Assembly (NCBI GenBank): GCA_027475525.1
Contig: JAMWFC010000102.1
Coordinates: forward strand, 434,001-498,000
Origin: Macrolepiota albuminosa
Taxonomy: Eukaryota > Basidiomycota > Agaricomycetes > Agaricales > Agaricaceae
Direction: 5' to 3'
Length of the DNA stretch: 64,000 nt
Both the position numbers and the translations under genes were made by a program. The notes below the pieces were generated by a model, which made no database searches, was not told the origin of the DNA, and saw only the letters and a list, made by a program, of their open reading frames with translations. Shown in pieces: positions 7,770 through 32,311 of this stretch (position 1 is its first letter; every line of letters begins with the position of its first letter).

Positions 7770-8138
7770 TTCTATTGAGGCAGAATTCCGCCGGAAACTC
7801 GAGCCCAGCGACAGCGCCGCCTCCTATTGGAGAGCGCGTTTGAACAAACCTTAACTGAGTCACCACACTTACCAGGCGCGCTACCGAGGCAGACCTTAGA
7901 TCAGGAACTTGAAGCCGCTCCAGATAGCTTGGCTGAAAGCTTCTTCCTGTTTTCCTGACCGTTCAAATACTTAGCAGGTGAAAACCATACACCGCTTACT
8001 CCTTTGGAAGAGCTGTCTAGGTCATTATCGCCAGAACCTAGCGACTCAGAATTACCTGAGCCAGTACCGACTACAACTACGCCAAGCAAAACTACCACTA
8101 ACACTACTATTCCCACCACGACGTCGACGCCAGCTAGT

Positions 8139-12589: not shown

Positions 12590-12600
12590 TCTCCCCCCAA
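12590..12600 (-). other. Polypurine tract of element B
   Basis: On the minus strand TTGGGGGGAGA abuts the 3' LTR. The tract and about 25 nt before it (GACTGAGGACAGTCAA) are the same in element A at 31230-31268, so plus-strand priming signals are shared by the two families. Confidence 0.8.
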
Positions 12601-12684
12601 CTGAAAAATTGACTGTCCTCAGTCACCAAATAAGGCTACCATTACCGCTTTTGTGACAAGTGGTCCGTGCGTTCTTGAGATTTG

Positions 12685-12691
12685 GTTTATA
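12685..12691 (+). promoter_or_regulatory. Possible TATA element of the antisense gene in B
   Basis: TTTATAG lies about 70 nt before the ATG at 12760 and just inside the polypurine tract. The equivalent gene of element A has a better TATAAAAG at a comparable place. Weak on its own. Confidence 0.35.
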
Positions 12692-12759
12692 GTCCTGGCG
12701 CATGAGTATGGACTTCGTTTCTCCTCCACATCTTTACCTGGCGCTCCAATAAAAAAAAT

Positions 12760-15165
12760 ATGTCTTTTCGAATTCCAACTCCGCCCCCTGTTCCTTCCCA
12801 AGCTGCCCAAGAAGCCGCCTACGCTTACATAGCGAAGGCCAATAATTTCATTCGACATATCGAGGGCGTTGGCGCCGAGGCGCCCCAAAAATTGGTCGTT
12901 GGCGTGATGAAGCTCTTGGAGCGCTGGTACGAGGTACGCGTCCTTGGCGTTGGGTGGGAGCGTGAGATCGAAGTGCGGGAATGGTGCCGTGCTCGGTATG
13001 TTGACAATCTTGGCGCCGAGTGGTTAGCGCCTTTCTCTCGTTTTGTACGTTGCTTTTGCTGCCTGTCGTGTCGCTTGCTGATCGAATTGCCAGGCGCCTC
13101 CTCCCGTCCCCACAATTGAGGACGAGCTGGAGGATATTCTGTCCGGTGCCTTGCCGATGACGGTAAGCGCGCCAGCGGCAGAGTGAGTATTCCTGACCCA
13201 TTCCTTTGACTTAGCTTTGGTCTGATTTATCGCCCCATAGCAAACAGGAGGTGTTGGCGCCCTTGGCGCGTATGCAGGTGGAAGAAGAGATCGCGGCAAG
13301 GCAAGAGGAGGTTTCCCAGGATGCCCGCGAGATTATGAGAGGGATAGAGGAGCGAGAGAGGGTGGCAGCGTTGGCGGCAGAGATGGAGGAGGTTGCCGCG
13401 GGGAAGGCGCCTGCCGTTGAGAGGCAGGCGGTAGCAGGGGGATCCGGTAAGGTAGGTCGCGCCGGCAGCACGTCGAGCCCAGTGCTGCCGGCTAGCAAGT
13501 CGGGCTCGCCGAGGAAGCCGGCAGGTGCTTCCAAGCGTAAGGTAAGTGCTGATTTCGCTTGCCGTTGCCGACAGTCGCTAACGACTTTTGCAGAGTCGCA
13601 AGGCGGCTCCTCAATACGCGGTAAGTGGTCCCTTCTTTTTGGACTGAAATCACTAAGTCTTTGTAGGCGCCAACACAATCGAGCTTTGACGACAAGGAGC
13701 TCAGAGGACTGTTGTTGCCGCGTCGCGAGGAGGCAGTCCTTGATGAGGGGCAGGAGGCCGGAGTCGTCATGGAGGAAATGAAGGGAAAGAAGACCGTTTC
13801 CCTGGCGACCCGGCAAGCGTTTAAGGAGGCGCGAGGAGCGGTAAGTGACATTTCTGTCTCCTTTAGTCTCTTGCTGACTTGTAGCGCTAGTGTGATAAGT
13901 GCTGGGCCGACAACGACCCAGAAGGCTGTTGGTTCCCGACCGGGGCCCAGCCTTGCTATCGTTGTGGCGCCCTCAAGCGCGCCTGCACTATCGATGGGGC
14001 CAAAAGTCGCGAGCGTGGCGGCGCGCCAGACGCCCTCGTCGAGAAGACGTTTTCCCGCGCGGTATTGGTAAGGAGGGCTAGGGAATTTGTGGAGGGGCAG
14101 AGGAAGAAGGTTGCTGCCGGTGGCATGGCAGTAATTGGACGGGCCTCCTTGGCGTTGCCGACACGCCAAGGGGATGGGTCAGAATCTGTTGGCAATCGAG
14201 GCGCCGGCGAGCGCCAAGGGACTTCGGTCCCAGAAAAACGACAAGCCCCTTCCCCCAGCAAAGGGAAGGGCAAAGCAAAGCGACCTCGGGTAGTGTCGTC
14301 GCCTTCCCCCTCGCCAACCCCTCAAGACATCGAAATGGCCGATCTCGAGAAGGCCTTGGCGGCGAGTCGCCTGCCTCCTCGCGATTCTGAGGCAGGCCCA
14401 AGTGGCCTTCTGTCGCCTATTCATTTGGCGGCGAGGTCCCTTGGTGAGGAGCAGGAGGTAGGAGAACGAGAAGCGGTTGGCGACTCGGCGCCTCAAGAGG
14501 AGCGGGAAGACGCTCCCGCAGACGTCGAGATGGGGGAGGAGAAGGCAGAGGGGGCGGCAACGGGAGGGGATGAAGACGCTGAAGGGGAGGAGGATGAAAC
14601 CTTGGCGACGCAGCGCCAAGGCGACGAGGAGGTGGTAGCGGGAGAGGGCGAGGAAGCGGCAGGAGTCGCCAGGGAGGAGCCTGAGTGGCGCTGGCTACCT
14701 CCCTACAGTAGCGTGGCCCCTTGGGAGGTTTCAGACCCGGAGGACGTTGCCGGTCTGGAGCCTAGGCGCCCCGTAATCGCCAGGATCAATCCTGCTTGGA
14801 CGCCTCAACCGCAGCCAACGGTCACAGGCGACGCCTTCAACTGGCTGGGACAAGACCTCGTGTACCCGGTAGTGGCGCTTAACCCGCGGGAGATGCTGGA
14901 GCGGTTTTCGAGGAGGGCGGCAACGATGGAGGCGGCAATGGGGCGAGAACGGGAGCGAGTCCGAGGGCAGCTCATGGCGCTGAGGTTGCGCTATGCCAAC
15001 CTTGGTCGTAGCCTTAGCGTCCTTCGCGACTACCAGGCAGATTGCCAAGCCGCCATCGATTGGCAGACCGCCAATAACATCTTGCCGGGCGACCTGCTTC
15101 CTCTTCGCGACTCTTCGTTGCCGATTTCGGACGATTCCCTGCCCATGGACGATGACAGTGATTAA
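12760..15165 (+). CDS. Antisense spliced gene of element B (Cys6-motif protein, about 707 aa)
   Basis: Six exons with in-phase GT-AG introns are deduced: 12760-13044, 13094-13162, 13248-13541, 13594-13620, 13667-13840 and 13891-15165, all phase 0. The protein has a helical N-terminus rich in Trp and Arg (residues 1-95), an Ala/Glu/Arg coiled-coil-like part (119-216), then, at the first codon of exon 6 (about residue 284), six cysteines spaced C-x2-C-x8-C-x8-C-x2-C-x6-C. A basic region, a long acidic low-complexity stretch and a C-terminal domain with GDAFNWL and GDLLPL follow. Exons 1, 2, 5 and 6 align with the element A gene. Function is unknown; the cysteines suggest zinc and nucleic-acid binding. 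No stop interrupts it. It is encoded opposite to gag-pol, in the 3' part of the element. Confidence 0.82.
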
Positions 15166-15581
15166 ACGAACCTTAGCGTAGATAGGTCGTTTATTGTATA
15201 GCTTTTTGATACCGCCTCGATATATATATATTGCCGTTTCCCTACCGAGTGAAAGAATAAGTCAAATAATCTGAGTTAGCGTAGCGGCAGAGAGCAGAGA
15301 AAGTAAAGCAGGCAGCAAGTATTCTAAGATAGGTTTTTAGCAAAAGGAGTAATATGTGAGGGACTTAGACAAATTTTGGAAAAAAGGGAAACGCTCAGTA
15401 GATCATCATAGCGAAAAACCCTTGGCGAGAGTTGCGCAAGGCGCTAAGCGCTGGCGACACGCTAGCGCTGCGGCTTGACTATGTAAGAAATTGTCTGTGG
15501 AATATAGTACAGTAAGTATCGGCAAGAAAGATAAGTAAGGTAAGTAATAGAAAGAAAGAGCTTATCAATATTTAGTCTTTT
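15166..15581. other. Convergent 3' ends of the antisense gene and pol in B
   Basis: This 416-bp spacer lies between the stop of the antisense gene (plus) and the stop of pol (minus). It is AT-richer than its neighbours, with TATATATATA near 15220. It presumably holds both 3' UTRs. No ORF is supported. Confidence 0.5.
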
Positions 15582-18500
15582 CTAATCGTTTTCTTCTTCT
15601 TCAACTAGAGTCGGCAAGTCATCATCGTCCAATAATTCTGTTTCTTCCAGTTCTCTTAACTTGGCGGTGTCGATATCTAGCGCTTCAAGCGGCAAGTCAA
15701 TGTGTTTTCTGGCGAGATACGGTAATAGGCGGAAAGCGGCAACCGGTCGATGTAGTACTGAACCATCTAATTCACAGAGCACGTAAGCGCCTCCACGGTT
15801 ACGAGAGATAACTACCAAGGGCCCTAGATAGCGCGGGCGCATTTTCTTATTGTATGAGGTTTCAATTTTGGAGTTGCGCATAAGCACTAGCGCTCCTCTC
15901 GGGAAGTTGTAATCTTTGATGGTAGCGCTATGCTCGGTTTCGAATCGTAGAGCTGCTTGGCGACGTGCGCTAAAGACTACCTCGTGGAGTCGCTCTAAAT
16001 CTTCTTTCCTTCGCTGGAGATCAATAGCTCGTCTGGCGATAAGATCGGTAGTCGCTAAGATGCTGTTGGGTGCTGGTTGAAGGTAGGTCGCTTCTATGAT
16101 GTCGGCAGGGAGTAAAGGATGGGTGCCAGTAGCCGCGTAATAGGGAGAACAACCCATGCGCTTACGAATAGTAACTCTTTCCGACCAGAACACTGAATAG
16201 GTCGCTTCACTCCAACGAGACTCGTCGCCATCGACTGCCTTGAAGAGCGCTTGCCGAACGTCAAAGTGTGGTCTCTCTACCAGGCCATTGGCGCGCTTGT
16301 TGTAGCCAGATACTCGAATGTGGTGAATATTGTATTTCTTGGCGAGGTAAGTTAGCGCTTTGATGATGGGCGCACCGTTATCCGTGACGATTTCTCTTAG
16401 CGCTCCCCACCGGCAGATGACGTCTTCAAATAGCCACTTGGCGACCGCCTCGGTATTTTCTCTTTGAAGCATGCGAAACTCAGGCCAGTGGATTAGCGAG
16501 CAACGACCTTGAATGATGTACTTATAGCGACCAGATTTGGGCATGTGCATGGTATCGACGTAGATTTTGCTGAAGAGGGGAGCTGGCGTTGCAACGGTTG
16601 GCGGTATGAGTACTTGGCGTGTCTGTTGAATTTGGCAAAGGTGGCAAGTCCTAATGTACCAGGCGATGTCGGCACTAGCGTGTGGCCACCAGAAGCGTTC
16701 TAACAGAGAAGCTCGAGTAGCGTACAGACCTCTATGACCTAGCTCGTCATGCATAGCGCGCAAGACTCGTAAGCGACCTTCTGGCTTGATGATCAGCTTG
16801 TGGGCGCCATCTCGATTTCGTCGCCAAAGTCGGTTGTCGGTAAAGAAGAAATGGGTAGCGTAGCGGATAAAGGTCGCGTATTGTTCGTCGGTAAGGTCTG
16901 GGGGTCGCTTAAGGTCTTGTATCCATTGCTCGACTACTAACAAGCGACTATCTTCCGCCTTTGCTTTAGCGGAACGGGGAACGGCATCGTAGGTCAGGTT
17001 TTTGCTGTCTTCTCTTAGCGACTGGGGTTCCTGTACGACTTTTACTGGAGGCAAGTCTTGTCCAAGGATGCTTGCCGTGTAGAATGTGAGGGGTGCGCTA
17101 AAGGTCTCGGGGCGGTAAGGGACGATGGGATGTAACAGGATACTGGTAGACTGTTGCCGTCGTAATAGGGGGATTGGCTGTTGTATGAGGTGCACGAAAC
17201 CATGTAAGCGGTCGATCCAGTCCTCGAAATCGCTATCAGCCTGTGGGTCCACTGCCGGGTCGCCAGGCTGCCGTGGTTGCCTAGAAAGTCCATCTGGTCC
17301 GTGGAAAGAGCTCTTGACGTGTACCAGCTCAAAGTGAAACATGAGGATAGCGACTACCCACCGGTTCATGCTAGCGGACGGCTGGATGTCGGGATTCTGC
17401 AGCATGCCTTTGATGTACCTAGCGTCGACTTCAACAATAAGGTTGCGCACGCCAATCAAATACATCTTTAGCGACCGGAAGGTTTTGAAAAGCCCATAGA
17501 GCTCTAGCTTAGGCTGACTGTAGCGAGACTCTCGGTCGTTTAGCGTGATCGACCCAAAGCGGTTGTAGCGTCGCTGTTTCCGATTGTCGCTAAGGCATTG
17601 GCACAAGAAGTAGCCAACGGCAATGTACGAGGTATCCACCGCCAAGATAACAGGGTCGGCAGAGGTATAATCGATGGGGACTAGGGGCTTGGCGTCCTGC
17701 AGAGCTTTTACTAAGTCGCGTTGGGCAGTGACCTGGTCTGGCCCAAATTCGAAGGGCTCGTTAGCGCGGGTGAGTCGGTTAAGAGCATGTGCGCGATGGG
17801 CAAAGTTTTTGACGAAGATCCTGAGAACGCCAACGGTGCCAAGAAAGGCGCGAACTTCAGATAAGTCGCGGCAAGGACCCCAGCGCTCTAAGAGTGCTAA
17901 GCGAGACTCGTCGGGAACACGACCGTCGGGAGTGCAGATGTGACCAAGTATTTTGAACCTTGGCACGCAAAGGAGGAGTTTGTGACCGCTAAACGTACCA
18001 CCGCTATACTTCATACGTTGGAGAGTATTTTGAACCTTGGCACGCAAAGGAGGAGTTTGTGACCGCTAAACGTACCACCGCTATACTTCATACGTTGGAG
18101 AACTCGATTGAGCAGCTGGAAAAAGTCCCATAGCGCTAAGCGAATATTGGAGTTGTCGGGATGGGTCGCCGGTAAGCCGTTTACGAGTCGCCAGTCTTTG
18201 GGGCCTTTGACGCCAACGTCGTCGATGAAGCTAAGGACGTTATGCGGTATCTCGGGTTGGAGGATGAAAGTGATGTCGTCATGGAATATGGGGACTGAGT
18301 TTGTCCAGCCCATCGGTAAGGTGACTAGGCGCAAGGCGCCAAACGGAGTTTGAAAAGTAGTGAGATCCCGGGAAGAGGGGTGTATCAGGCGTTCGTCGTA
18401 GCCAACATAGAGGTCAAGGGTGGCGCCACAAATGCGCCCGGCAAAGGACTCGGCAAAGTGGTCAGGAAAAGGCGGTACGCCAGAGTGTCGTATGGTTACT

Positions 18501-19507
18501 CTATTCAGCGGCTCAAGACTGTGAACTATACGTAGATTGCCGTTCTTTTTGAGGACACAGAACCAACGAGAGCGGTAAGAACTATTGGAAGGCTCGTAGA
18601 CGCCAGCCTGTATCTTGGTCCTAATGATTTGGCAGACCTCGGCTTCGATCCCAGGCGGTAGCGGTCGGTTGTGCTCAGTCCACGGCACATGAGGGATAGT
18701 CGGGATGACGACAGGCGGGAAGAAATCTGTACGTAGACTGCCGCGTTCTGAGTCCTCCCAAGCAAAGGCTTTGTCTTGCTTAGCGACGAGATCGGTAAGG
18801 ACGTTCAACTCATCCTTGGTCAAAAATCCTGTGTCGTGCTCCTTGGCGAACTGCTGCTGGCGCTCCATGGTAAAACGTCCTGTGGGCTGAAAGGGTGGCG
18901 GATTCGGTGATAAGGTCGGTATGTCGGCAAGAGGGTCGCCAATGATCTGGCGCTCGATTCTAAAAGTCTCGGGAGAGTGCGTAGCAACGGGTTTTGTTTT
19001 AAGCGCAACTGGCTTATATTTCTTTTTAACTTGTACCCCTTTCCTTTTGGGAGTGTTAGCTTGGTTATACACAGATGTGGAAAGGGGAACTGTAGCCTGA
19101 GGAGCGGCAAGTCCAAGAACGGCAGGAGACGAGGCTCCGGGAAGGGTAGTGAGATACGTATCGGTAGACGCAATATTTTGAAACGATTCGGAGGCGGTAA
19201 GGTATAAGTACGCTAGAGCTGAGTCGGTAATATCTGGGTTTTTCTGAGAAAGCTCAGCGTCGGTAACGTTAGAGGAAAGCAAAACTTCATCGTCAAGACA
19301 AGCGGTAGATATAATATTTACAAGACCAGTTGAATGGTCATATTCCAGCGTTAGCGCTACATCTCCGTGATCGTCGCCAATCACCTCCTCGATGGTCTGT
19401 GAAAACACCGGTGTGGAGGCTCGTTGGCGTGCGCTACATCTCCGTGATCGTCGCCAATCACCTCCTCGATGGTCTGTGAAAACACCGGTGTGGAGGCTCG
19501 TTGGCGT
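15582..19507 (-). CDS. Element B Pol: reverse transcriptase, RNase H, integrase
   Basis: The frame enters by a -1 shift from gag-pro near 19480 and stops at 15582. Order: acidic linker, KKKYKP, RT with LKKNGNLR, PFGALRLVTLPMG and FIDD (the YxDD box with Phe first), RNase H with VDTSYIAVGYFL, integrase with an HHCC zinc region (HDELGHRG and CHLCQ) and DDE residues in VDTMHMP, TDNGAP and VERPH, then a GPL/Y module (RPRYLGPL). There is no chromodomain. A 77-bp duplication (17948-18101) splits RT and another (19354-19507) lies at the start; with single copies the frame is open throughout. It aligns along its length with Pol of element A. Probably active. Confidence 0.9.
17948..18101. repeat. 77-bp tandem duplication no. 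3 (RT of B)
   Basis: Positions 17948-18024 are repeated at 18025-18101. It shifts the frame between the two halves of the B reverse transcriptase; single copy restores continuity. Confidence 0.92.
19354..19507. repeat. 77-bp tandem duplication no. 4 (gag-pro/pol junction of B)
   Basis: Positions 19354-19430 are repeated exactly at 19431-19507. The unit covers the gag-pro stop and the candidate frameshift heptamer, so both appear twice. Confidence 0.92.
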
Positions 19508-21847
19508 GTTGATCGGTAAATTCCGGGGGCTTAGCGCGGGCGCCTTTTCGTTGTCCCCTAGGGAACGTTGGCACCGTCCGTCGGATTCCGGAATTGGGGT
19601 CGCTAATTGTGAGGGTCGTTTCCTCGTCGGTAACTGTCTTGACGACTGATCGCGCCAAGACGTCGAAAGGTCTGCCGAGTAATAAGTCGTATGCTGGGGA
19701 GCGTAAGATGTGTATCTGAAGGTAAAATGTAATGTCGCCAAGGGTGCACGGCACATTCTTGGCGAGGCCTAGGGATCTGTCCACGGTACCGTTAGCGCTC
19801 TGCATGTTTAGTATCCAAGGGTGCACGGCACATTCTTGGCGAGGCCTAGGGATCTGTCCACGGTACCGTTAGCGCTCTGCATGTTTAGTATCACCGTAGG
19901 GTCGTAAATAAGGCCTAAATCGTTAGCAACTTCTGCTGCCATAGAAATAATCTGAGACCCGCTATCCACGATTGCCTCTACTTCGTGCTTGTTGTCTACG
20001 GTTAGCGCTACCGAGCGGATAGCGTGCGATTCTTGAGCGACGGTAAGAATTGCTGGGTCCTCTCCATGGTCCACAGACCTAAGGTAGGTCTCTACTGGGT
20101 CCACAGAAGTGGCGTTAGCGATAGGGTCGGCAGGAGTGTCTTCAGTGTCGGGAGAGTCGATGGTAACAGAGAAACCAGGAAGCGCATCGTCGAGTTCATC
20201 AACCTCGGCAACGGCTGTCGCCAAAGGTCGTCGAGGAGTAACTGCTGTCTTGACCTGATTGCGAACGTCGGGAGCAATACTGCAAAGTTCTTCAACTGAC
20301 AAGGTGACGGCGGTTTTCATGATGCGGCTAAAAACGTGGTTTGATTTTTCGATGTCGAAAATTGGCGCTGTAGGTCGGTAGCCACCCTCAGGACGTTTCT
20401 CGGGAGCGGCAAAGTTTCGTTGTGCGGGAGCGTGATAACGGTCGGGAATCCCAGAATAGGGATGTAAAGGCGGCAAAGGTGGTTCGGGAGCGGTAGCGGA
20501 CGATGAGGGTTCTGGAGCAGGAGCAGGGGTAGTAGCAGGCGGTGCGGCAGGAGCAGGCGTCGGTAATTTGCTAGCGGGAGGCATCGGCTTGTATCCTTTA
20601 AGAGGTTGTTTGGGCTGCTTAACTTCAACCCCATCAAAGACCTGGTTCTTCAGCGAATCCAACTCCTGTTGCAGCTTGGCGATACGTTCTTCCCGCGAGA
20701 AAGTAGGGCGGTCGCCAACGCTGTCGAAGTGTAAGACCTCGTGGATCATTTGCTGTTGGGTCGCCTGTTCGGGGTCGGGGTTGGCGTTGCCAGATAGCGT
20801 GCCGGTAACGATTTGTCCTGGGTTGCGCCTATGCCATTCATCAATTCTCTCCTGGAAGGACTTCTTGTCGGGGTAGTTGGGAATGGTGGCGCCAGAGGTA
20901 AGAACTATCTTGCCGTCGATAGCCCTTCGAATTCTTCCTTGCCGAATATAATTCTCGAGGGTAGCGCAGCGTCCTCGAGTCATAGTGTGGCCGATTTCCC
21001 CACAGAAGTGGCAAGGGCCAGGTGCGGGTACGTTAGCGGGTCGGTTAGCAGTGAGGTTGGTGGTGATCATGGTTTCAATACGTGTCATAGCGGAAGCGAC
21101 AGCGGCGGTAATAGCAGCATTGAGCTCCTCCTTCTTAACGAAGTCGGCAGCAGGAGGCGGGATGGGAATGATACCGTTAGTTCGCTCAGGTGGTGGGCTC
21201 GTCCTAGCGCGCTGCAGTCCAACGCCAGTGTCCGTTCCCTTGAGAACCCATTTACCGGCTTCAAAGACGTCGGCAACGTTATAGGGCTCGTCTGGGTGAT
21301 GAGCCTGATGAACTATCTCTAGGCGACGAGCAATACGCGTCCACAGTGAAGTCGGGATGCCCTGCTGAAATAGGCGACGCTCCTCGTTAATATAGAGCTT
21401 GCCGTTCTGCAGAAGCCACCTAGCAATTTTCTGGAACTCGCGGTAATACGTGGAGAATGCGCCAAGAGAAGAAGTGCCGTTGTCGAAAGATTCCTGTACT
21501 AGTTTCTGCAGCTCGTTTACCGTGTATCGGGTAGCCTCTTCTGCGCCAGGGTACAACTGGATCACTGCCGTTTTCCAGTCCTCGTACGAAGCGCCTTGAG
21601 CTGGAGCTGGCGGGGCGGCAGGAACAAAGGCGGCAAACTCGGTTAAACCTGTCCATGTCTCTGCCGTGTCATACGATACGTATCTTGCCGCGTACTCCTT
21701 CATCTGCGTGTGGTCGGTAATGTTACAGTCTCTGAACAAATACTCCAACTCTTTGAAATACTGGGAGAGCTCCCGTGGCTTGGTCTCGTCCCATTTCGGT
21801 GCCGAGAAGTGGTTGCGTGGCGGCATGCGTTGGACTTGTTGTTCCAT
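19458..21847 (-). CDS. Element B Gag-protease polyprotein
   Basis: It starts at the ATG at 21847 (MEQQVQRMPPRNHF) and, after removing the 77-bp duplication at 19738-19891, runs to a TGA at 19458-19460 (first met at the equivalent place in the other junction copy). Gag residues 1-230 align with element A. A zinc knuckle C-x2-C-x4-H-x6-C lies near residue 280, a Pro/Ala-rich linker follows, and a VDSGSQ protease motif lies near 19965. Pol lies in the -1 frame. The conserved TGTTTTC occurs just before the stop. Family role: particle assembly and RNA packaging. Confidence 0.88.
19738..19891. repeat. 77-bp tandem duplication no. 5 (protease of B)
   Basis: Positions 19738-19814 are repeated at 19815-19891, splitting the protease reading frame of B. 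Confidence 0.92.
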
Positions 21848-22206
21848 GGCGACTGTGTTGGCGAGTTCGGTTAGCGGTAGTGGGGAAGGAGTTCTGGAGA
21901 TTGGCGACGGGGTAAGCGAAATGAGTTGAGAAAGAGGCGTTAGCGGAGTAATGGGAGTGATTGACTGCGGTACGGTAAAGGGCGACGCTAAGGGGTCGTC
22001 GGCACTATAATCGAGGGAATGCGGGAAGAGATCAGGAAAAGCGTCTACAGTGGCGTTCTGTAGTTCCTGGGCTAGAGAGAGACCCGGTAAGGCACCAGGT
22101 GGTTGTGGGGTTGATGGGTGGGAAGGAGCTATGCCTTCTGCCGACTGGTCTAGCAGGCGGCGCCTACGCTGGAGACGGGTTTCTGGCGGAATTCTGCCCT
22201 AGAGAT

Positions 22207-22224
22207 CCCTCGCGGTGGGCTCCA
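22207..22224 (-). other. Primer binding site of element B
   Basis: On the minus strand TGGAGCCCACCGCGAGGG starts 3 nt after the 5' LTR end. It is identical to the core of the element A site, so the same tRNA should prime both families. Confidence 0.7.
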
Positions 22225-22227
22225 ATT

Positions 22228-23170
22228 TGATGACGCCCAAAGTTTGGTCAGTAACAAATGTAGCTTAAGTGTTACCGTACCAAGAGTGTGCGTTGGGCGC
22301 GCTATAAGTGATTTGAGGAGTCCCGGGCAGGTCCCAGAGAACGCGTCTGTGAAAAAGGGTAAAAGTCGGTAACGGGGTCGGCAAGTGTCAAGCGCTAAGG
22401 TAAAGCGCCTAAGGAAAATGCGGTAAGTGAACACGGCAAGGGTGAGCGGCAAGAGCACGATAAGCTTAGCGAAGTTCTAAGCGTCGATAATGCCTGCCGT
22501 AGTTGCAAGGCGCGAAAGTGTCGAGTGTTGGCGAACGTCTGTAACTACCGATGAGTTCGACGTTGCCGACCGTAGCGTAAATGAGCTCTTGAGCGTAAGG
22601 GAGACTGAGGAAAGGGGAGTAAACTGTGGTCTATTCCTCTGATCTGATGATTGTACAAGTCGGTAAGTACTTTTATACTACAAAGAGTTCGCCGTCGCCA
22701 GTGGTCAAAGAGCGGTAAACTGGAAAATTTCCTAGGGGTAGCTCCAACAGTTTCAGATCCCTGCCGTCCATTCAAGACCCTTAGCGCCACCAGGCGGCAG
22801 ATCGCGGTGCTAAACCATCAGTCCATCACCTTTCTGTCTGTCCAAACGGCTAAGCGATGCCAGGTGCCAAATCGAAGCGCTAAGCGGTTTCGGACGCCAA
22901 GGTCAAACGCCAAGCTGTCCGTCAGTTTTTGATAGATGATCAGGCTTCTCGCTAAGCGCTGTCGTCGGTGACTGATGCCATCTGTCAGTTGTCATTCCTG
23001 CTGCCGTCGGCGCTATCATTGATTGGATCTGCTTCTTGCCGTGCGCGGCCGTCAGAAGTGGCTTAAAATAGGTAGAACGCGTGCGCTAAGTTCGGAACAA
23101 GTGCGGCAAGGTTTCCGGAGCCGGTGCCGAGCCTGCTGTTGATGCGCCTAACCTGTATAGGGTCCTATCA
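22228..23170 (-). repeat. Element B 5' LTR
   Basis: 943 bp, nearly identical to 11647-12589. The three differences noted are G/A near 23099 and two C/T changes near 23136 and 23151. It is followed on the plus strand by the ACGT duplicate and the resumed RT of element A. Confidence 0.93.
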
Positions 23171-25783
23171 ACGTTTATTCTCCAACCCGAAATACCCCAC
23201 CATGTGCTTAGCTTTATCGACGATGTTGGCGTTAAGGGCCCAAAAGATTGGCGCCTTGTAAATGGGAAGCCCGAAGTGCATCCGGAAAATCCTAACATCC
23301 GCATGGCGCTATGGGACTTCTTCCAGTTGGTCAACCGGGTGCTCCAGCGCATGAAATATTGTGGTGGGACTTTCTCAGGACACAAGTTGATTCTTTGCGC
23401 ACCACAATTTAAAATTTTAGGGCACGTTTGCACGCCAGAAGGCAGGATCCCTGAGGAGAGCCGATTAGCGCTTCTAGAAAAGTGGGGAGTCTGCCATAAC
23501 CTCTCGGAAGTTCGCGTGTTTCTAGGCATGGTAGGCGTGTTGCGCATGTTCATACACCATTTTTCACATCGAGCGCACGCGCTAAATCGCCTAACCCGTT
23601 CAGGGGTTCCCTTCGAATTCGGACCCGACCAGATTAATGCCCAAAAGGACTTAGTGAAGGCGCTACAGGAAGCAAAGCCATTAGTGCCCATCGACTATAC
23701 GACTGCCGACCCCGTTATACTTGCAGTTGACACTTCATATATCGCCGTTGGCTTCTTCCTATGCCAATGCGATGGCGAGAACCGAAAAATCAGGCGCTAC
23801 AACCGCTTCGGATCGATTACCCTTAACAACAGAGAATCGCGCTATAGTCAGCCCAAGCTAGAGTTATATGGCTTGTTTCGATCGTTCCAGGCGCTACGCA
23901 TGTACCTTATCGGGGTTCGAAATCTGATTGTCGAGGTCGACGCGCGTTACATCAAGGGAATGCTCCAGAACCCTGATATTCAGCCATCAGCTAGTATGAA
24001 TCGCTGGGTAGTAGCGATATTAATGTTTCACTTCGAATTAGTACACGTCAAAAGTGCGTTCCACGGGCCGGACGGATTATCTAGGCGACCCAGACAGCCG
24101 GAAGATGAAGCGCTAGACGATAGCGACAACAACGTATTTGACGACTGGATCGATCGACTGCATGGTTTCATACATATCATCCAGTTGCCTATTCCGGCGC
24201 TTCGCGAAGACCAGCCCGTTCTATCTTGGCTACATCCTATTGTTCCGTACCAGCCCCGACCATATCAGGCAACCTTAACTTTTTACACGGCCAGTATCTA
24301 TAACGTCGCTAAGCCATCTAACGATCTAAAGATAGTTGAGGAACCAAGACCCTTGCGGGAAGACAGTCATAACTTACCATATTCAGCGGTACCTCGAAGC
24401 GCCAAAGCTAAGTCAGAAGATCAGCGAGTTGGCCAGGTTAGGAAGTGGCTACAGGATTTGTGACGACCATCAGACCTTACGGATACGGAATACGCCACCT
24501 TCATTCGATACGCGACAACCTTCTTTATAGTGGAAAACCGACTTTGGCGACAAAATAGAGATGGCGCCCACAAGCTAGTAATTAAACCGGACAATCGAAT
24601 TAGAATTCTACGCGCTATGCACGATGACTTGGGACACCGTGGACTCTACGCAACAAGAGCGAACCTTTTGGAGCGCTTTTGGTGGCCTCAAGTTAGCGCC
24701 GATATTGCGTGGTATATTCGCACTTGTCATCTCTGTCAAATCCAGCAGACACGTCAGGTTCTTATTCCCCCAACAGTAGCGACCCCAGCGCCGCTATTTG
24801 GAAAAATATATATCGACACCATGCACATGCCCAAGTCAGGGCGCTACAAGTATATCATTCAAGGAAGGTGTTCCTTGGTACATTGGCCGGAGTTCCGTAT
24901 GCTCCAACGAGAAAATACAGACGCTATAGCTAAGTGGCTCTTTGAGGACGTTATCTGCAGATGGGGAGCCCTTCACGAGATCGTCACAGACAATGGAGCG
25001 CCAATAGTTAAGGCGCTCACTTATCTTGCCAAGAAGTACAACATTCAACACATACGGGTTTCTGGTTACAACAAGCGCGCCAACGGAATCGTAGAAAGGC
25101 CTCATTTCGACGTTCGACAGGCGCTATTTAAGGCGGTCAATGGTGACGAAAGTCGCTGGAGCGAAGCGACTTATTCGGTCTTCTGGTCGGAGAGGGTTAC
25201 CGTGCGAAAAAGGATGGGTTGTTCACCCTACTACGCGGCGACAGGCACCCATCCACTCCTCCCGGCCGACATAGTGGAAGCTACTTACTTACAGCCACCC
25301 CCGAATTCGATACTATCTTCCACCGACATGATTGCTAGGCGCGCTATAGACTTACAGCGACGCATGGAGGATCTCGAGCGCTTACACGAAGTAGTATTTC
25401 AAACTAGACGACAAGCTGCGCTACGATTTGAAAGCGAGCACAGCGCCACGATTAGAGACTACAACTTCACCTCTGGCGCCCTCGTACTAATGCGCAACTC
25501 AAAGATCGAAGTTACCCATAACAAAAAGATGCGACCTCGGTATCTGGGACCCCTAATAGTGGTTTCCCGCAATAGGGGAGGCGCCTATGTACTCTGCGAG
25601 TTGGACGGCTCAGTTTTGCATCGACCAGTAGCGGCGTTTCGACTCATCCCCTACTTAGCACGGGAACACATTCCCTTACCTTCGTCGGCGCTGGACATTG
25701 ACACGGCTAAACTACGAGAACTGGAAGAAACAGAGTTAGTGGATGATGACGAGACCCCTGTTGACGACGACGAAGAACAGTAA
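23171..25783 (+). CDS. Element A Pol, second part: RT palm, RNase H, integrase
   Basis: This continues the RT cut at 11646: FIDDVGVKG (YxDD box, about 23210), RNase H with VDTSYIAVGFFL, integrase zinc region (HDDLGHRG and CHLCQ, about 24620-24745), DDE residues in IDTMHMP, TDNGAP and VERPH, and the GPL/Y module near 25545. It ends at 25783 with an acidic tail and no chromodomain. One in-frame TGA at 24461-24463 interrupts the RNase H to integrase linker. The flanking residues match B (WLQDL, RPSDLTD), and CGA to TGA is a plausible origin. The copy is therefore probably not autonomous. Confidence 0.88.
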
Positions 25784-25930
25784 ATGAAGGCGAAGGACAA
25801 GGCGCTAGGTGTTAGCGCCCCCGTTAAGTAAACTTAGGTCATGTCTCCCTTTCGGAAGGCATATTGGATGACATAAATAGCTATGGTACAGGCGAGAACA
25901 CAAAATCAACTACGGTTACTACGTTACGAG

Positions 25931-26649
25931 CTATGCTGAAGAAGACCGGCGACGAGAACCTCGGACTCGCTCCCTGGGCCGCCTAAAGGAGGGAGGACCG
26001 CCTGGAGGAGGAAGAGGGGCGCCTGGTGTAGGCACCGGAGTGCTCGAAGGCGGCGCGTTGCGAGATACGGCGGGAGGAATGCAGGATGAAGGTACTGGAG
26101 CGCTAGGAGTTGGCGCAGGAGGAGCGCCTGGAGGAGGGGCAGCGAGTTCGGGGGAAAGGTCCCACTCCCCGTAGGAGGGCTGAAGCGAGGGCGGAAAAGG
26201 AAAGACCACGCAGTCGAGGACTGCCCTACGGGCACGGGACTCAACCAGGAGCGGAAGGGGAAGCCACAAAAGGCTCTTGGCAACGGCATGGAATTAGCAA
26301 CCCAAGGTCAGAAGGAAAGAGCTATTGACTAACCAAACTACCAGTCTCCCGAAGAAGGCTTGCCAAACTTGCTGCGCTAGGCGTAATAATCAACTGCGAA
26401 CACATGAGCAACAAACAAGATACGCGCTAACAGGAGGCGAACCGTGACCAGAGACTCATCCTGGTCTATCATCCATTCGGTGGAGGCGTCCAACAGGATG
26501 CGATATCGGCGCACCAGGGTCATGGTATTTCCGTTTTCATGAGGGAAACCCCCCGTAGGCATAATAGCCAGGAAGTGTTCAATACGATCCAAGATCGCGG
26601 GGCGGTGAGGAAGTTCCGGATCTGGGAGAAGTATGGAGGGTGCTGGCAT
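25931..26649 (-). CDS. Third antisense gene of element A (hypothetical, Pro-rich C-terminus)
   Basis: The ATG is at 26649. The first exon encodes a helical segment that resembles the first exon of the gene at 26969-27484 (both have an FL..PAG/PTGG-type turn followed by RR and a Trp about 10 residues later, then RI). Downstream on the same strand a Pro/Ala-rich frame ending in a basic tail (RRPRERVRG then RRRSSSA) stops at 25931. The exon junctions between these parts were not resolved. It lies antisense to gag-pol and converges on the pol 3' end. Function is unknown; a paralogue of its neighbour is likely. Confidence 0.45.
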
Positions 26650-26805
26650 GATGAAATACTAACAAACTTAAGGGCGGCAGAGCCCATAAAATATCTCTAG
26701 CTACTTGCAGGGTCGCAGCGACTTAGGAACTTTTACATGGGCGAAACAATCACGAGGGGGGGGGGGCGACAACAACGATGCATTTAATATACGACGACAT
26801 TGGAA

Positions 26806-26959
26806 ATCAAGAATCTAAAATCTGTCAGTTCTGTGGCGCTACGGAGAAGGGAAGATCACCTTACATAAACGACATGGGAGGCATCAAGAATCTAAAATCT
26901 GTCAGTTCTGTGGCGCTACGGAGAAGGGAAGATCACCTTACATAAACGACATGGGAGGC
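26806..26959. repeat. 77-bp tandem duplication no. 6
   Basis: Positions 26806-26882 are repeated at 26883-26959, in the spacer between the two short antisense genes of A. Confidence 0.92.
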
Positions 26960-26968
26960 AAAAGCAAA

Positions 26969-27484
26969 TCAAGGAGCGGGCAACAGGAGGAAACGCGTCC
27001 CTCCGTCAGAGGGGCCACGAAAGAGGCGACCACCGGTAGAAGAACGAGGAGACTGGTGAAGAAGGCGCGGTTAGACAGGAAAAGAAAGGAGTAACGGGGT
27101 AAGGACAGACGGACCAGATAGTGGCTTTCTTCCAGCAGCAGCTCAAGACGCTCTCGCGTGGAGGTGGGAGGAAGTTGCTTTAATTAGCGACTGTCAGCAA
27201 AGAAGAGGGCGAAAAAGGCAGGAGCGCACCTGAAAAATGCGACTCCAGGCCTTCTCCATACCAAACTGCATCAGAGGTTTGCTATCCGACCAGATCTCAC
27301 AGGCCGCACGCAGCAACTGGCAGCGACGACTTAATTCGAGGGCGCCATCGTCCAGTTCTGGCACGCTGCCAGCAGGATAGTGGTGAAGGAAAGAGGTGAC
27401 ACGCTCTAGGAAAGTGGGAGGGTCCATCATGACGTGAGCACGATCACAGCGGGGAGTCCACACCAGGCCGGTCGGGCTGGTCAT
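26969..27484 (-). CDS. Second antisense gene of element A (hypothetical, about 133 aa)
   Basis: Three exons are deduced, all phase 0 with GT-AG introns: 27484-27230, 27177-27115 and 27052-26969. A TATAAAT-like box lies about 40 nt upstream of the ATG on the minus strand (near 27523). The protein begins MTSPTGLVW, has a helical body with ELSRRCQLLR and a Trp-containing segment, then a short exon rich in Leu and Glu, and a Gly/Ser/Arg tail ending LLLPAP. It resembles the N-terminal part of the neighbouring gene at 26649 and, weakly, exon 1 of the large antisense gene. I do not recognise it. Element B has no counterpart. Confidence 0.5.
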
Positions 27485-28603
27485 CGCGAAGACTGATGAG
27501 ATCCAGTTGATGCATATGCAATTTATAGGACACGGCTAGAGTTAGAACGGCGACAGCGTGGGAGGACGTTTCACAAAGAACGAGGACCCTGACGAAGATA
27601 CTAGCCAATGAGAGGCGCTTGACTCATTGTTGGACCGCGCAGAAAGGAAATCGCCATTCTAGACCTAGCGCTTATGATCACCATCACCGAATAGCCACAA
27701 AACGATTTCTGGCACTCTATTACTTTATAGAATAAGCTTCTTGCATGGACCTACTTATTATTTTACAGACGATACCCTTTTCTTTCTAGGCTGGCGCGAT
27801 AATGGCTATTGGGCAGCGCCGGCAACAGGGGTTTTTGCGCCATGATGATCTACTGAGCGTTTCCCCTTTTTACTTATTTTCTGTTGATTACTTACAAACT
27901 GACGATTTGAAGCCAAGGGTGATGATCTACTGAGCGTTTCCCCTTTTTACTTATTTTCTGTTGATTACTTACAAACTGACGATTTGAAGCCAAGGGAGGC
28001 GTTTATTTTAGTATCACACTACAAAGTTCATATCAAAAGACAAAGTCCATAAAAAGTTTAAAAGCGCTGATGGTCGGTGTCAGGGGACCCCTCATTCCTT
28101 TCTTCTTTCACTCCTTATTTCTTCACTCTCCTTTCATTCACTTCCTTATTTCTTCTACCATTCTCTCATTTTGCTGTTACTACTTCTTCAACACTATCTG
28201 TTGGTACTATTCTCAACCTTTGAGGTGCTCTGGTTCTTTAGCTATCACTCAGACAAGTGTGGGCCCTTCAGCACCGCTCCAGGCTGCTTAGATAAGCCGG
28301 AGTTTGCCTTTCTGACTTCTAAAGTCCGGAGTTTTCCTCCCTTGTTTGCACACTTGTTTGGTTAGTCAATTTTCGAGTTTTTAAGGTTTTGTTGTACTGT
28401 ACAGTTGTTTCCCATGCTTCAGAGGCCCCAGAAGCGTCCAACCTGGCATAGGGAATCCCCAGACTTGTTCTCTTTGGATCTCCCTCTGCCAGGTGAGTAG
28501 CTACCTTGATATTGTCAGTATATATTCTAATACACTTTGGATCTCCCTCTGCCAGCTGTGTGACTGAGCCACAGCCTCTAGAGGTTGCCCTTACAGTCGG
28601 CAA
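27485..28603. other. Spacer of element A with a CpG-poor repeat insert
   Basis: No gene is supported. 27843-27996 is a 77-bp duplication. From about 28075 to 28603 the composition changes: CpG becomes rare, unlike the rest of A, and a long pyrimidine-rich run fills 28090-28200. The 21-nt phrase CTTTGGATCT plus CCCTCTGCCAG occurs twice, near 28474 and 28536. About 75 bp (28535-28605) resemble 35488-35572 outside the nest. This looks like a small inserted repeat whose right end touches the stop codon of the large antisense gene. On the minus strand the end has a TGGCTCAGT word like a tRNA A box, so a SINE is possible. Confidence 0.4.
27843..27996. repeat. 77-bp tandem duplication no. 7
   Basis: Positions 27843-27919 are repeated at 27920-27996 in a non-coding spacer of element A. 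Confidence 0.92.
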
Positions 28604-31122
28604 CTACGGATCATACTCGGGAAGGGCGGGATCGCCCAAAGGAAGCAAGTCCCCATCCTGGATCGAGTTACTCGCTTGCCACTCAAGTGCAGCGGTAATA
28701 TCGTCATGGAGCTCGAGAAGGAGGCGCTCGCGGCGAGCTAAGGTGGAAACGCGAGGACGCAGGTTTGCAAGTTCACGACCAACGGCTTCGGTCGCATCCT
28801 CGATATGGCGGAGTTGCTGGCGAAGGTCGGCAGAAGGGCGGAGAGGGGTAACAGGATAGGAGAACTCGTCCCTGAGCCAAGGGAAGGCGTCACCAGAAAC
28901 TCGCATGGCGGGAGGGGGAGTCCAAAAGGGATCGAACTTATGGAAGGTTAGAAAAGGGGAGAAAAAGGGGAACAAACAAAAACGGACGTACCCAGACAGT
29001 TACAGGCGCACGGGGTGTCCACTCATGGCGCTCGTCGCCAGGGGACATAGCTCTGGCGGAAGAAAGATGGATGCCGTAGGGAGGCAAGTATCTCCAGCGG
29101 CGACGACGCTCACCTTCCGGCACCAGGGTTCCTTCGGATTCCAGCGCTGCAGAAGTCTCGCGACTACTAGGAAAAGAAGAGGAGCTGTGGGGAGGAGTAA
29201 GGGATGGAGTGATAGGGAGAGCAACCGGAGTGTCGCTAGCCGCAACCGACTCGGGGGCGGGGGTAGCGCCAGCGTCAGACATAACGACATCTTCGGCAGC
29301 AGGGATAGCCACAACGACGGGAACGGGAGTGGGGGACCTATCAGTCAAGAAGTTAGCACGCGAAGAAAAGAGAAGTTAGGAAAATGCGTACTGGTTACCA
29401 CTGGGGCCACTCTGACAAGGGTTAGCGGCGATAGGGGGAGTAAGGCGAAGCAGGAGAGCGCGTACTGCCAACAGCGCATCGGCATCAACAACGGGCTCAG
29501 CTTCATCATCATCCTCTCCCTCGGCATCCCTCTCAGTGCCTTCCCCCTCATCCGTAGAAGACTCGGTCGAAGACAAAACCACAGGCGTAGCAGGCGCTAG
29601 CTCGCGGCGCTTACCAGGGCTCTTGCCAGGAGACGCGACAACAGGCTTACGTTTCGAAAGAACGGGACGACAAGGAGAGCGAGCAAAAGGTGCCGCCACG
29701 GTAGTACCATCCTGGGTAGTCGGCAGCGCCAGGCTGGCTGCGCTGATTACCGTGGGTTGGTGAGTAGCCGCCAGATCACGTTGCTGCAGCACAAAGTCCC
29801 GGGCGTTACGAACCAACACCGCGCGCTCATAGTTCCTTTGCATAATGGCGTCCCTACCACGTTCACGGGTACGAATCCTGTTGAAGGCGCAGCCTCGTTT
29901 CAACGCATCGCACCGATAGCAAGGCAGAGACGCGGTAGGAAACTAGCAGCCCTCAGGGTCGTTCTCAGACCAACACTTGTCACACTAAGAAAGAAGTCAA
30001 CGATGGCATGAACCTACTATGGGGCAAACCAGTGCTTACCGCGCCAATCTTTGCCCTAAACGCGCAACGCTCCAAGGGCGCAACGGTAACCTTCTTCTTG
30101 CCGCCCAGCACTTGGACACCAGCCAGGACGCCGGTATCAATAACGGTAGTATCACGGCGAAGACGCAAAAGGTCGCGAAGCTCCGCGTCGGTGAACATGG
30201 TCTGGTTAGGCGCCTATCGACATTAACATTTAGGCGCTAAAGTCTAGCGACAACGAGCAAAGCACTTACGACATACAAAGGGGGAACACGAGCAGGGAGA
30301 TTGATCTGGAAGGGGGAGAAGTCAGAAAAATGGAGTAAGGAAGATAGGAAAAGAACGCACGGTACGTTTGGGAGGAGAACTAGCACGAGCAGGAGGCGCT
30401 CGTTCAATAACAATGGCGAAATTACGCGGAGGACCGTGAGAAGTTGGGCGCGTCGGGCCGGGTCGTGGCTCGCTACGAGAAACGGCAATACGTTTGATGG
30501 CCAAATGGGGAGGGGCAGTACGGACGGGAGAAGCAGCGCTTGGGGCAGGGCGAGTGGAAGAAGCAGCGCCACGAAAAGGGCTGCCAAGAACGGAAGGAGG
30601 CGGAACAGAAGTCAAAGAAGGAGGGGCGGTAGGAACAGAAGGGACAGTAGAGGCCGAGGGGGCAGTAGGAAGACTGGCGACGGTGGGAGACGTGGCAACC
30701 GACTACTCAAGGATTAACAGTGGAAAAAGGGGGAGAAGGAAGGACTTACTTCGCTGACCTCGGTGCTAGCCAACAACGCGTCGATCTCGTCAGATAAGGA
30801 GGGAGCCTAGTATGGGCGCTGAACCTTAGCGCCACAACGCCAAAATCAAACTTAGAAAACTTACGAAAAGGTCCACGAAAGGGCGCAACCAATCGGCACC
30901 CTCATACTCACGGTACCGGGCCACGCACCACTCACAAACCTCGTCACCCCGCTCCCAGGAACTGTCGGAGCCGCGGACCACAAGCCAGCGCCGATAGAGT
31001 TGCATAATACCAGGGACGGTTTGTGGCGCATCGGCGGGACCGACAGACTTAGCGCGATCAAATAAATAGGAGGCCTTAGCCAGGAAATTGCGGAGAGCAG
31101 AGGCGTCGAAAGAAGTGGACAT
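28604..31122 (-). CDS. Antisense spliced gene of element A (Cys6-motif protein, about 712 aa, one nonsense codon)
   Basis: Eight exons are deduced: 31122-30865, 30806-30750, 30702-30361, 30305-30270, 30213-30040, 29984-29392, 29337-28992 and 28936-28604; lengths sum to 2139 nt with consistent phases. Homology to the element B gene is clear: the exon starting APS at 30806, the 174-nt exon at 30213 (same length in B, with AELRDLL matching KELRGLL), the exon that opens with Cys-Asp-Lys-Cys-Trp, and a C-terminal domain with GDAFPWL and GDLLPL. The Cys6 spacing is the same as in B. A TAG at 29943-29945 replaces the Trp that B has beside the third Cys. A TATAAAAG box lies about 50 nt upstream. Function is unknown; it may bind nucleic acid. 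Confidence 0.8.
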
Positions 31123-31171
31123 ACTGGGAAGATGGGAAGGAAAACACGGGAAGGTGAAGTACGGAAAACGA

Positions 31172-31180
31172 CTTTTATAA
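31172..31180 (-). promoter_or_regulatory. TATA box of the antisense gene in element A
   Basis: TTATAAAAG on the minus strand lies about 50 nt upstream of the ATG at 31122 and about 80 nt from the polypurine tract. It implies Pol II transcription into the element, against gag-pol. Confidence 0.6.
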
Positions 31181-31257
31181 GGCGCCGGCGGCATTATACG
31201 GACCGTAGCGCAGTCAAATTAACGACGGCGTTTGACTGAGGACAGTCAATTTTTCAG

Positions 31258-31268
31258 TTGGGGGGAGA
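31258..31268 (+). other. Polypurine tract of element A
   Basis: TTGGGGGGAGA directly precedes the 3' LTR and is identical to that of element B. Confidence 0.85.
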
Positions 31269-32311
31269 TGATAGGCTTCTACTCGGACTGAGCGCATCAA
31301 GGGACATTATAGGCTGACCAACACTTGACACACTAAAGGCTCTAGCAACCAGCCTTGGGTACAGAGCAGCCCTAGCGTGGGCGCTCTATGGCAAGACTTA
31401 TCCATTCATCTCAATCACCAGTAGCAGCCCCTCAGCGCACTCCACTCAGTTACTTTGAAGACCAAGAAGACTCAGGACTCATAGCGCTAGCATAACGGCG
31501 GGAGGGGACTCTGACCAAACCCCGATCAGTACTGGAAGGAGTTAGCAATTGGCGCTGTCAATCACCGAGGCACCTCAATCAGAAGTCTAAAAGACTCAAT
31601 GACGACGAGACAGGATACACGCAGACCCGACATTTAAATCTATCAAAAGATGGTACAATGTTTAGCGCTGGAATTAGCGCTCACGGCGTCTGTCGAGGAT
31701 TCCCCGACCATACCCTGGGATGGCATGGCCAATTAAATTACATCAAAAAGTGAGCAAACTCGTACCACTTCTAAGTAGTTTTAGAGTCGCCGTTGGTCGC
31801 CGTCACCCATGTGCTGCAGGTCGCCGTTGACAGGTGGCCGTTAGCTACAGTCACGAAGAGAGGCGCTAATTGGTAGCGCCGTCAATGGACTTATTTTGGA
31901 AATAATGTAGCGCATAGTATAAAAACTAGCTACTTGCCATGTATATAACAACGAATCGTAACCTCTTGAGCACCCAGTTACACTTAGCGTTCAAATCGCA
32001 CTAGCATTGCCTGACTTTGCCACCAAGTTCGGCGCTAGCTTCGTCTATCTCGTCTTTGTCGTTTACGGTGCCACCTACGGGCACGCTACGCTGCGCTATT
32101 CGTTTCTTTCTCTATAACTTCTCCTAAGCTACGACGCTTACCACTTGCTAGGTAGCATCCGAGGCGCTATCGTCTAGCGCATCGCCCTATCACCTCTGCT
32201 CGAGCACACCGGGACCCTGCCGGGACTCCTCACAAACCCGTACGCCAGGCGCTGGAGACGGCGTTGTACTGCGTATACGTCCAGCGCACCCAACCACAGT
32301 TGGCGTCATCA
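31269..32311 (+). repeat. Element A 3' LTR
   Basis: 1043 bp, about 99% identical to 6705-7747. Differences seen by eye are all transitions, most of them in CpG or former CpG sites (for example CCG/CTG near 7099 and 31315). Confidence 0.93.

What the first reader, a model, noticed from the sequence alone, without database searches (positions are those of the whole stretch)
12760..31122. Two related LTR retrotransposons each carry a homologous, multi-exon gene antisense to gag-pol
Elements A and B diverge strongly in LTR and coding sequence, yet both hold, between pol and the polypurine tract, a spliced gene on the opposite strand encoding proteins of about 712 and 707 aa. Shared features are phase-0 exons, an exon of exactly 174 nt in both, an exon that opens with the Cys motif, and the same C-terminal domain. 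Retention in two lineages argues for selected function in the element's life cycle. Antisense ORFs are known in some plant gypsy elements; a conserved spliced one of this type in a fungus is, as far as I know, not described.
Basis: partly seen in the sequence, partly recalled or inferred. Interest (0 to 1): 0.88.

Follow-up and report, generated by a model that had tools for sequence, protein, structure and literature searches.

The report
Spliced antisense genes in fungal retrotransposons
Jumping genes in a mushroom genome related to the termite-farmed fungi carry, on their opposite strand, an intron-containing gene (in one family three such genes) that natural selection has kept working, so it probably makes a protein that the jumping gene needs or profits from.

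Summary
Two nested Ty3/gypsy elements, A (11646-23170) and B (6705-32312, interrupted by A), each carry between pol and the polypurine tract a multi-exon gene on the opposite strand (A: 6 exons, 718 aa; B: 8 exons, 712 codons; 34% identical). Corrections: B's window copy has an in-frame stop in the cysteine exon, absent from 32 of 32 other copies read; one B intron is phase 2; the lengths differ slightly. In the host genome, pooled dN/dS is 0.097 for 21 A-type copies (cysteine motif 0.009), and 0.245 and 0.210 for genes 2 and 3 (first exons, 11 copies). Gene 1 is opposite to pol in 35 of 35 pairings found. All protein relatives found are named Termitomyces. The novelty claim is only partly right: an antisense gene (brtn) is published for fungal Boty elements, and plant Retand, Grande and RIRE2 have antisense genes. 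New here: many introns, a three-gene module, measured purifying selection. Most likely a nuclear accessory regulator; function and splicing are untested.

The parts
11646..23170 (-). Element A, Ty3/gypsy LTR retrotransposon, inserted in the pol gene of element B
   Evidence: LTRs 11646-12589 and 22227-23170, 944 nt, 99.7% identical; gag-pol frames on - with RNase H, integrase zinc and protease domains; 4-nt target duplication ACGT read from the edges printed
12760..15165 (+). Antisense gene 1 of element A: exons 12760-13044, 13094-13162, 13215-13541, 13594-13620, 13667-13840 (174 nt), 13891-15165; 718 aa
   Evidence: 22 of 30 A-type loci have all ten splice dinucleotides GT..AG at the aligned columns
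13891..13986 (+). Cysteine motif C-x2-C-x8-C-x8-C-x2-C-x6-C opening the last exon of A's gene
   Evidence: pooled dN/dS 0.009 over the first 40 codons of the exon
12590..12600 (-). Polypurine tract of A (TTGGGGGGAGA on the - strand), next to the LTR
   Evidence: sequence; the motif is found in 26 of 30 A-type loci
12610..12625 (.). Dyad TGACTG-TCCT-CAGTCA between polypurine tract and gene 1 of A
15582..22198 (-). gag-pol of A, cut into three frames; 77-nt exact tandem duplications lie at the breaks
6705..32312 (+). Element B, Ty3/gypsy LTR retrotransposon, interrupted by A
   Evidence: LTRs 6705-7748 and 31269-32312, 98.9%; gag-protease frame 7959-10295, pol frames 10629-11687 and 23090-25783
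28604..31122 (-). Antisense gene 1 of element B: exons 31122-30865, 30806-30750, 30702-30361, 30305-30270, 30213-30040 (174 nt), 29984-29392, 29337-28992, 28936-28604; in-frame stop at 29943-29945 in this copy
   Evidence: each of the seven introns is GT..AG in 31 or 32 of 32 other loci; the stop is absent from 32 of 32
26969..27484 (-). Antisense gene 2 of element B: exons 27484-27230, 27177-27115, 27052-26969, about 133 aa (exon model read by eye); TATAAA at 27527-27522
25931..26649 (-). Antisense gene 3 of element B; first exon from 26649, last exon ending 25931 with a basic tail; inner exon junctions not settled
31233..31248 (.). Dyad TGACTG-N4-CAGTCA of B, next to its polypurine tract (31258-31268)

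Best explanation
A family of Ty3/gypsy retrotransposons of a Termitomyces-like mushroom carries an antisense accessory module at its 3' end. Gene 1, starting about 150-170 nt inside the 3' LTR and reading back towards pol, is a spliced protein-coding gene kept by purifying selection. B-type elements add genes 2 and 3, which are related to each other. Shown: the anatomy, conserved splice sites, orientation, retention and selection at the protein level. Inferred: the protein is a nuclear, nucleic-acid-binding accessory regulator (helical N-terminal domain, six-cysteine motif, KRPR-type basic patch, acidic stretch, 63-residue C-terminal helix that suggests self-association), made from its own promoter, which acts on the element's own 3' end or LTR, the conserved dyad beside the polypurine tract being a candidate site. 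Antisense orientation explains how introns can survive in a retroelement: the genomic RNA carries only their complement, so they are not spliced out before reverse transcription (inference).
For: Selection: pooled NG86 dN/dS 0.097 over 21 A-type copies, 0.009 in the first 40 codons of the Cys exon; only the true frame and its mirror frame -2 (0.192) are low, the other four frames give 1.5-3.2. For the 15 copies with a readable pol 3' part: pol 0.033, antisense gene 0.100. Genes 2 and 3, first exons, 11 copies: 0.245 and 0.210. Splice sites: all GT..AG in 22 of 30 A-type loci, 31-32 of 32 B-type loci per intron. Orientation: 35 opposite, 0 same. Three of three pol copies without a listed gene partner that I fetched do have the Cys exon antisense. 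Gene order: gene 2 follows gene 1 in 102 of 150, gene 3 follows gene 2 in 120 of 150 listed hits, same strand, with none on the opposite strand; A-type 0 of 99. Dyad: 642 exact copies in the genome, 0 for the reversed pattern; 17 of 17 pol copies on contigs C1-C43 have it 3.7-4.0 kb away on the opposite strand. Structure: N-terminal four helices, mean pLDDT 87; C-terminal helix 332-394 of the last exon with block means 91-96.
Against: No expression data: transcription and splicing are predicted, not seen. No Pfam family over its cut-off in gene 1, so 'nucleic-acid binding' rests on a motif; the Cys region was modelled with pLDDT under 40. Introns are less diverged (p 0.09-0.27) than synonymous sites (pS 0.36), which neutral introns would not predict; short introns, gaps or a role of the DNA itself could cause it. 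31 of 99 listed A-type hits have a stop in the last exon (hand count) and 16 of 32 B-type loci are not intact in the 8-exon frame. Best-hit lists favour intact copies. The 51 of 100 listed dyads not near a listed hit were not followed up. The dyad may serve reverse transcription rather than a protein.
Confidence: 0.55

Rival explanations
1. Anti-silencing factor: the antisense proteins bind the element's own DNA and counter host methylation or silencing, like VANC of plant VANDAL elements (recalled, no call).
For: Older copies show CpG decay typical of methylated DNA: C>T/G>A at 206 of 780 CpG positions against 136 of 1916 other C/G positions (L069 to L070), 184 of 780 against 177 of 1925 (L069 to L071), 103 of 634 against 170 of 1743 (B to L072). 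So there is silencing to counter. The Cys motif is the slowest part of the protein.
Against: CpG decay is common in silenced repeats and says nothing about these proteins; no homology to VANC was tested.
Confidence: 0.2
2. Particle or import accessory: the protein acts after transcription, in the particle or the pre-integration complex (nuclear import, targeting), and the dyad is a cis signal of reverse transcription beside the polypurine tract.
For: The dyad and polypurine tract are the best-conserved non-coding DNA shared by A and B (86% over 71 nt; 28 of 30 A-type and 30 of 34 B-type loci hold it); a basic patch and a helical N-terminal domain would fit.
Against: Made from the opposite strand and spliced, the protein would have to be made apart from gag-pol; no gag-like, envelope or known import domain was found.
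Confidence: 0.15
3. The antisense RNA itself is the functional product (dsRNA, regulation of gag-pol), and the frame is incidental.
For: Antisense RNA is discussed as a regulator in plant elements (PMC7264820, parts 1 and 2 of 3 read).
Against: Codon-level selection in one frame only, variation at codon positions 1/2/3 of 97/66/280 of 423, indels mostly in multiples of three.
Confidence: 0.04
4. A captured host gene or a chance overlap without function, or an assembly artefact.
For: The assembly has k-mer artefacts in these repeats: exact 77-nt tandem duplications, 6 in the window and 70 in the 81 fetched loci, none at any other spacing from 40 to 120. Window elements may be mosaics of copies.
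Against: The same exon chain recurs at many loci on different contigs and in proteins predicted in other Termitomyces genomes; dN/dS is about 0.1.
Confidence: 0.02

Closest known systems
brtn of Boty-like elements, Botrytis cinerea (Zhao et al. 2011, Virology 417:248; seen only as title in PMC8365987 and described in PMC7264820)
   Same: Fungal Ty3/gypsy element with an extra gene antisense to gag-pol between pol and the 3' LTR
   Different: Ascomycete; whether it has introns or cysteine motifs was not seen; homology not tested. Here a basidiomycete, 5-7 introns, up to three antisense genes
Plant antisense additional ORFs: Retand (TRP28, PF04195), Grande gene23, RIRE2, PvRetro13 (PMC7264820, two of three parts read; PMC11963269, abstract and passages)
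   Same: Place, orientation, presence in most copies, suspected nuclear or DNA-binding role; Grande gene23 is described as transcribed from its own promoter
   Different: No TRP28 match here; multi-exon structure; the papers' passages that I saw report ORFs, not a chain of five or more introns
HBZ of HTLV-1 (passage in PMC11963269; splicing and bZIP nature recalled)
   Same: Antisense gene read from the 3' end of a retroelement, encoding a nuclear protein; works like a possible model for this one
   Different: No bZIP match here; different kind of element; no evidence of kinship
Zn2Cys6 fungal transcription factors (PF00172) and DUF3716 (PF12511)
   Same: Six cysteines in two CxxC-led halves; DUF3716 gave weak matches in 2 of 11 proteins, best E 0.12
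   Different: Loop spacing 8 and 8 with an acidic first loop instead of the short basic loop of Zn2Cys6 (consensus recalled); no Pfam match to PF00172

Membership tests
Antisense additional-ORF elements (aORF-3R type) | Extra coding gene between pol and 3' LTR, antisense to gag-pol | tested here: met
Antisense additional-ORF elements (aORF-3R type) | Present in most copies of the family | tested here: inconclusive
   35 of 131 listed pol copies have a partner in the capped list of 99 gene hits; of the 96 without one I fetched three and all three have the gene; 17 of 17 pol copies on contigs C1-C43 keep the length of the region. Consistent with most copies, not counted for all
Antisense additional-ORF elements (aORF-3R type) | Conserved like the other element proteins | tested here: met
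   dN/dS 0.100 against 0.033 for the pol 3' part in the same 15 copies: constrained, though less than pol
Antisense additional-ORF elements (aORF-3R type) | Own promoter, antisense transcript | not testable with these tools
   Only TATA-like sequence seen (B genes 1 and 2); no RNA data
brtn / Boty | Sequence homology to BRTN | not tested
   No BRTN sequence was fetched
Retand TRP28 | PF04195 domain in the antisense protein | tested here: not met
   No such Pfam match in gene 1, nor in the first-exon pieces of genes 2 and 3
Zn2Cys6 cluster (PF00172) | Pfam profile match and canonical spacing | tested here: not met
   No match; spacing x2-x8-x8-x2-x6
HBZ-like | bZIP domain | tested here: not met
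   No bZIP Pfam match in gene 1
Ty3/gypsy LTR retrotransposon | LTR pair, polypurine tract, gag, protease, RT-RNase H, integrase after RT | tested here: met
   RT itself was read from the frames, not matched as PF00078 in the pieces scanned

The most novel reading that the evidence does not exclude
These are complex retrotransposons: a three-gene, intron-rich antisense module comparable in logic to the accessory genes of complex retroviruses, in which gene 1 makes a self-associating metal-binding nuclear factor that recognises the dyad at the LTR edge and controls the element's own transcription, priming or silencing, with genes 2 and 3 as duplicated co-factors.
Probability: 0.3. Interest if true: 0.85.

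Novelty: new variant of a known kind. Interest (0 to 1): 0.62.

Why it matters
If true, retrotransposons with accessory genes as elaborate as those of complex retroviruses exist in mushrooms, and the antisense strand is the place where a retroelement can keep introns. It gives a genus-wide set of hundreds of natural copies in which the role of antisense genes in LTR elements, unknown since the plant cases were described, can be tested by expression, binding and localisation, in fungi that live with termites.

Tried and rejected
Rejected: exon 3 start at 13248, replaced by 13215 after comparison with Termitomyces proteins. The protein search and query 1 used the earlier 707-aa model; searches used the 718-aa model. 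One search aligned loci without turning the minus-strand ones; its table is superseded.

Dropped rows: dN/dS used 21 of 31 rows (window plus 30 loci): L009 is the window copy, nine loci (L013, L017, L020, L021, L022, L030-L033) were left out for frame. For three of the nine (L020, L021, L031) the printed alignment shows an in-frame acceptor two columns away, so these look intact with a 30-nt exon 4; I did not recompute. Four of the 21 carry one stop, skipped as a codon. One search used 15 of the 21. Pooled pairs are not independent. Exon 4 alone gives 0.612 over 9 codons.
Full report
What is there. The window lies on a contig of a 100.1-Mb genome held in 129 contigs. Element A has LTRs at 11646-12589 and 22227-23170 (99.7% identical over 944 nt) and its gag-pol on the minus strand. 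Element B has LTRs at 6705-7748 and 31269-32312 (98.9% over 1044 nt), gag-pol on the plus strand, and is split by A, which sits inside its pol gene with a 4-nt target duplication. Their LTRs do not match each other, their pol genes are 72-77% alike in DNA. Both carry Ty3/gypsy domains: aspartyl protease, RNase H, integrase zinc domain.

Gene 1. On the strand opposite to gag-pol, starting 170 nt (A) and 146 nt (B) inside the 3' LTR and running back towards the end of pol, lies a multi-exon gene. A: six exons, 718 aa, five phase-0 introns. B: eight exons, 712 codons, the same five introns plus two, one of them phase 2. The proteins are 34% identical from end to end (E 3e-79). Exon 5 has 174 nt in both; exon 6 opens with a six-cysteine motif. 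The window's B copy has an in-frame stop in that exon, which none of 32 other B-type loci shares.

Genes 2 and 3. Between gene 1 and pol, element B has about 2 kb that A lacks, with two more antisense genes (27484-26969 and 26649-25931). Their first exons are related to each other (hhalign probability 90%, E 1.5e-6, 47 columns) and not detectably to gene 1. In the genome, gene 2 follows gene 1 on the same strand in 102 of 150 listed B-type gene 1 hits, gene 3 follows gene 2 in 120 of 150 listed gene 2 hits, mostly 0.7-0.9 kb on; no opposite-strand pair; and 0 of 99 A-type hits have either (lists typed, which are capped best-hit lists).

Copies. First-look candidates in the genome: 1238 for A-type exon 6, 837 for B-type, 376 for gene 2, 286 for gene 3 (candidates, not confirmed copies; 99, 150, 150 and 150 were scored). 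Without a stop in the matched stretch, by hand count of the tables: 68 of 99, 147 of 150, 140 of 150 and 130 of 150 listed. These lists favour intact copies. All ten splice dinucleotides are in place in 22 of 30 A-type loci; seven others differ at the exon 4 acceptor only and one is disrupted. Each B intron is GT..AG in 31 or 32 of 32 loci; 16 of the 32 keep the whole 8-exon frame.

Selection. Over 21 A-type copies pooled dN/dS is 0.097, exon by exon 0.03-0.13 (the 9-codon exon 4 gives 0.61), and 0.009 for the first 40 codons of the Cys exon. Reading the same columns in the other frames gives 1.5-3.2, except frame -2, which shares the third codon positions and gives 0.19. In 15 copies where the neighbouring 3' part of pol could be read, pol gives 0.033 and gene 1 0.100. 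First exons of genes 2 and 3 over 11 copies: 0.245 and 0.210. Against expectation, the introns are less diverged (p 0.09-0.27) than synonymous sites (pS 0.36).

Linkage to the element. Of 131 listed copies of A's pol end, 35 have a listed gene 1 within 6 kb beyond the 3' end of pol, 35 in opposite and 0 in the same orientation; 96 have none in the capped list. I fetched three of those 96 and each has the Cys exon antisense with an open frame of 387-423 codons. In all 17 listed pol copies on contigs C1-C43 the dyad described next lies 3.7-4.0 kb from the start of the matched pol stretch.

A conserved dyad. Between the polypurine tract and gene 1, A and B share TGACTG-TCCT-CAGTCA. The 17-nt form occurs 642 times in the genome, the reversed control 0 times; with a free 4-nt spacer 976 strand matches against 3 in the control, many of them the same site counted on both strands. 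It is in 28 of 30 A-type and 30 of 34 B-type loci (some loci do not reach that far). It may be a protein site, a promoter part or a reverse-transcription signal.

Protein. No Pfam match over cut-off for gene 1. The N-terminal exon is modelled as four helices (mean pLDDT 87); the last exon is mostly disordered with a confident helix at 332-394; the Cys region is not modelled with confidence. A basic KRPR-type patch recurs in A and the J132 proteins (alignment). This makes a nuclear nucleic-acid-binding protein likely, not shown.

Relatives. Three protein searches (23, 17 and 31 hits, two of them limited to about 8000 scored candidates) returned only proteins named Termitomyces, from strains T32_za158, T159_Od127, J132, Mn162 and T112. 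The search needs shared 5-residue words, so distant relatives in other mushrooms are not excluded. The host is therefore probably Termitomyces or a near relative (inference).

Literature. [quoted passage not shown] PMC11963269, abstract and passages; PMC8365987, passages). Retand's antisense TRP28 protein is suspected to bind DNA; Grande's gene23 product is nuclear and has its own promoter according to PMC7264820. The present case is the same kind with differences: many introns, three genes in one family, a different protein. Ten library searches did not turn up a fungal intron-rich case; subscription papers are mostly missing from that library.

Why antisense and spliced. A sense-strand intron would be removed from the genomic RNA and lost at the next reverse transcription; on the other strand it is safe. 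So a host-like intron-bearing gene can live in a retroelement only antisense, which fits the anatomy (inference from the known replication cycle).

Assembly caveat. Exact 77-nt tandem duplications occur 6 times in the window and 70 times in the 81 fetched loci (two of which cover the window itself) and never at any other spacing from 40 to 120: a k-mer assembly artefact that also breaks the window's gag-pol frames. Single elements may be mosaics; the conclusions rest on many loci.

Verdict. A real, selected, antisense, intron-bearing gene family in gypsy elements, with a newly seen three-gene version; a new variant of a known kind. The regulator mechanism is my best guess at 0.55.

Noticed in passing
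window 10578, 17947, 19354, 19738, 26806, 27843 (77 nt each): Exact 77-nt tandem duplications, only at spacing 77, also 70 times in fetched loci: k-mer assembly artefacts that shift frames in gag-pol.
   Followed up: yes
window 25931-27484: Two further antisense genes in element B, related to each other, conserved in order in many B-type copies.
   Followed up: partly
window 12610-12625 and 31233-31248: Perfect dyad beside the polypurine tract, 642 copies genome-wide in the 17-nt form.
   Followed up: partly
window about 15386-15410 (+) and 27886-27862 (-): A short motif (GGAAACGCTCAGTAGATCATCAT) downstream of gene 1 is shared by A and B, perhaps a terminator or poly(A) region.
   Followed up: no
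window 4935-5895: A copy of A's LTR, about 91% identical, lies in reverse orientation to the left of B, within an older gypsy-like stretch (1887-6821, - strand).
   Followed up: no
L069-L072: Diverged copies show excess C>T/G>A at CpG, which suggests methylation of these elements.
   Followed up: partly
L020, L021, L031: A sub-family with an exon 4 acceptor two columns away and a 30-nt exon (alignment).
   Followed up: no
window 45432-45992 (-) and 61449-62087 (+): Host genes to the right of the elements: a plectin/S10 domain frame and an XRN 5'-3' exonuclease frame.
   Followed up: no
window 1424-1720 and 33455-33751: A 297-nt direct repeat, 93% identical, outside A and B, unexplained.
   Followed up: no
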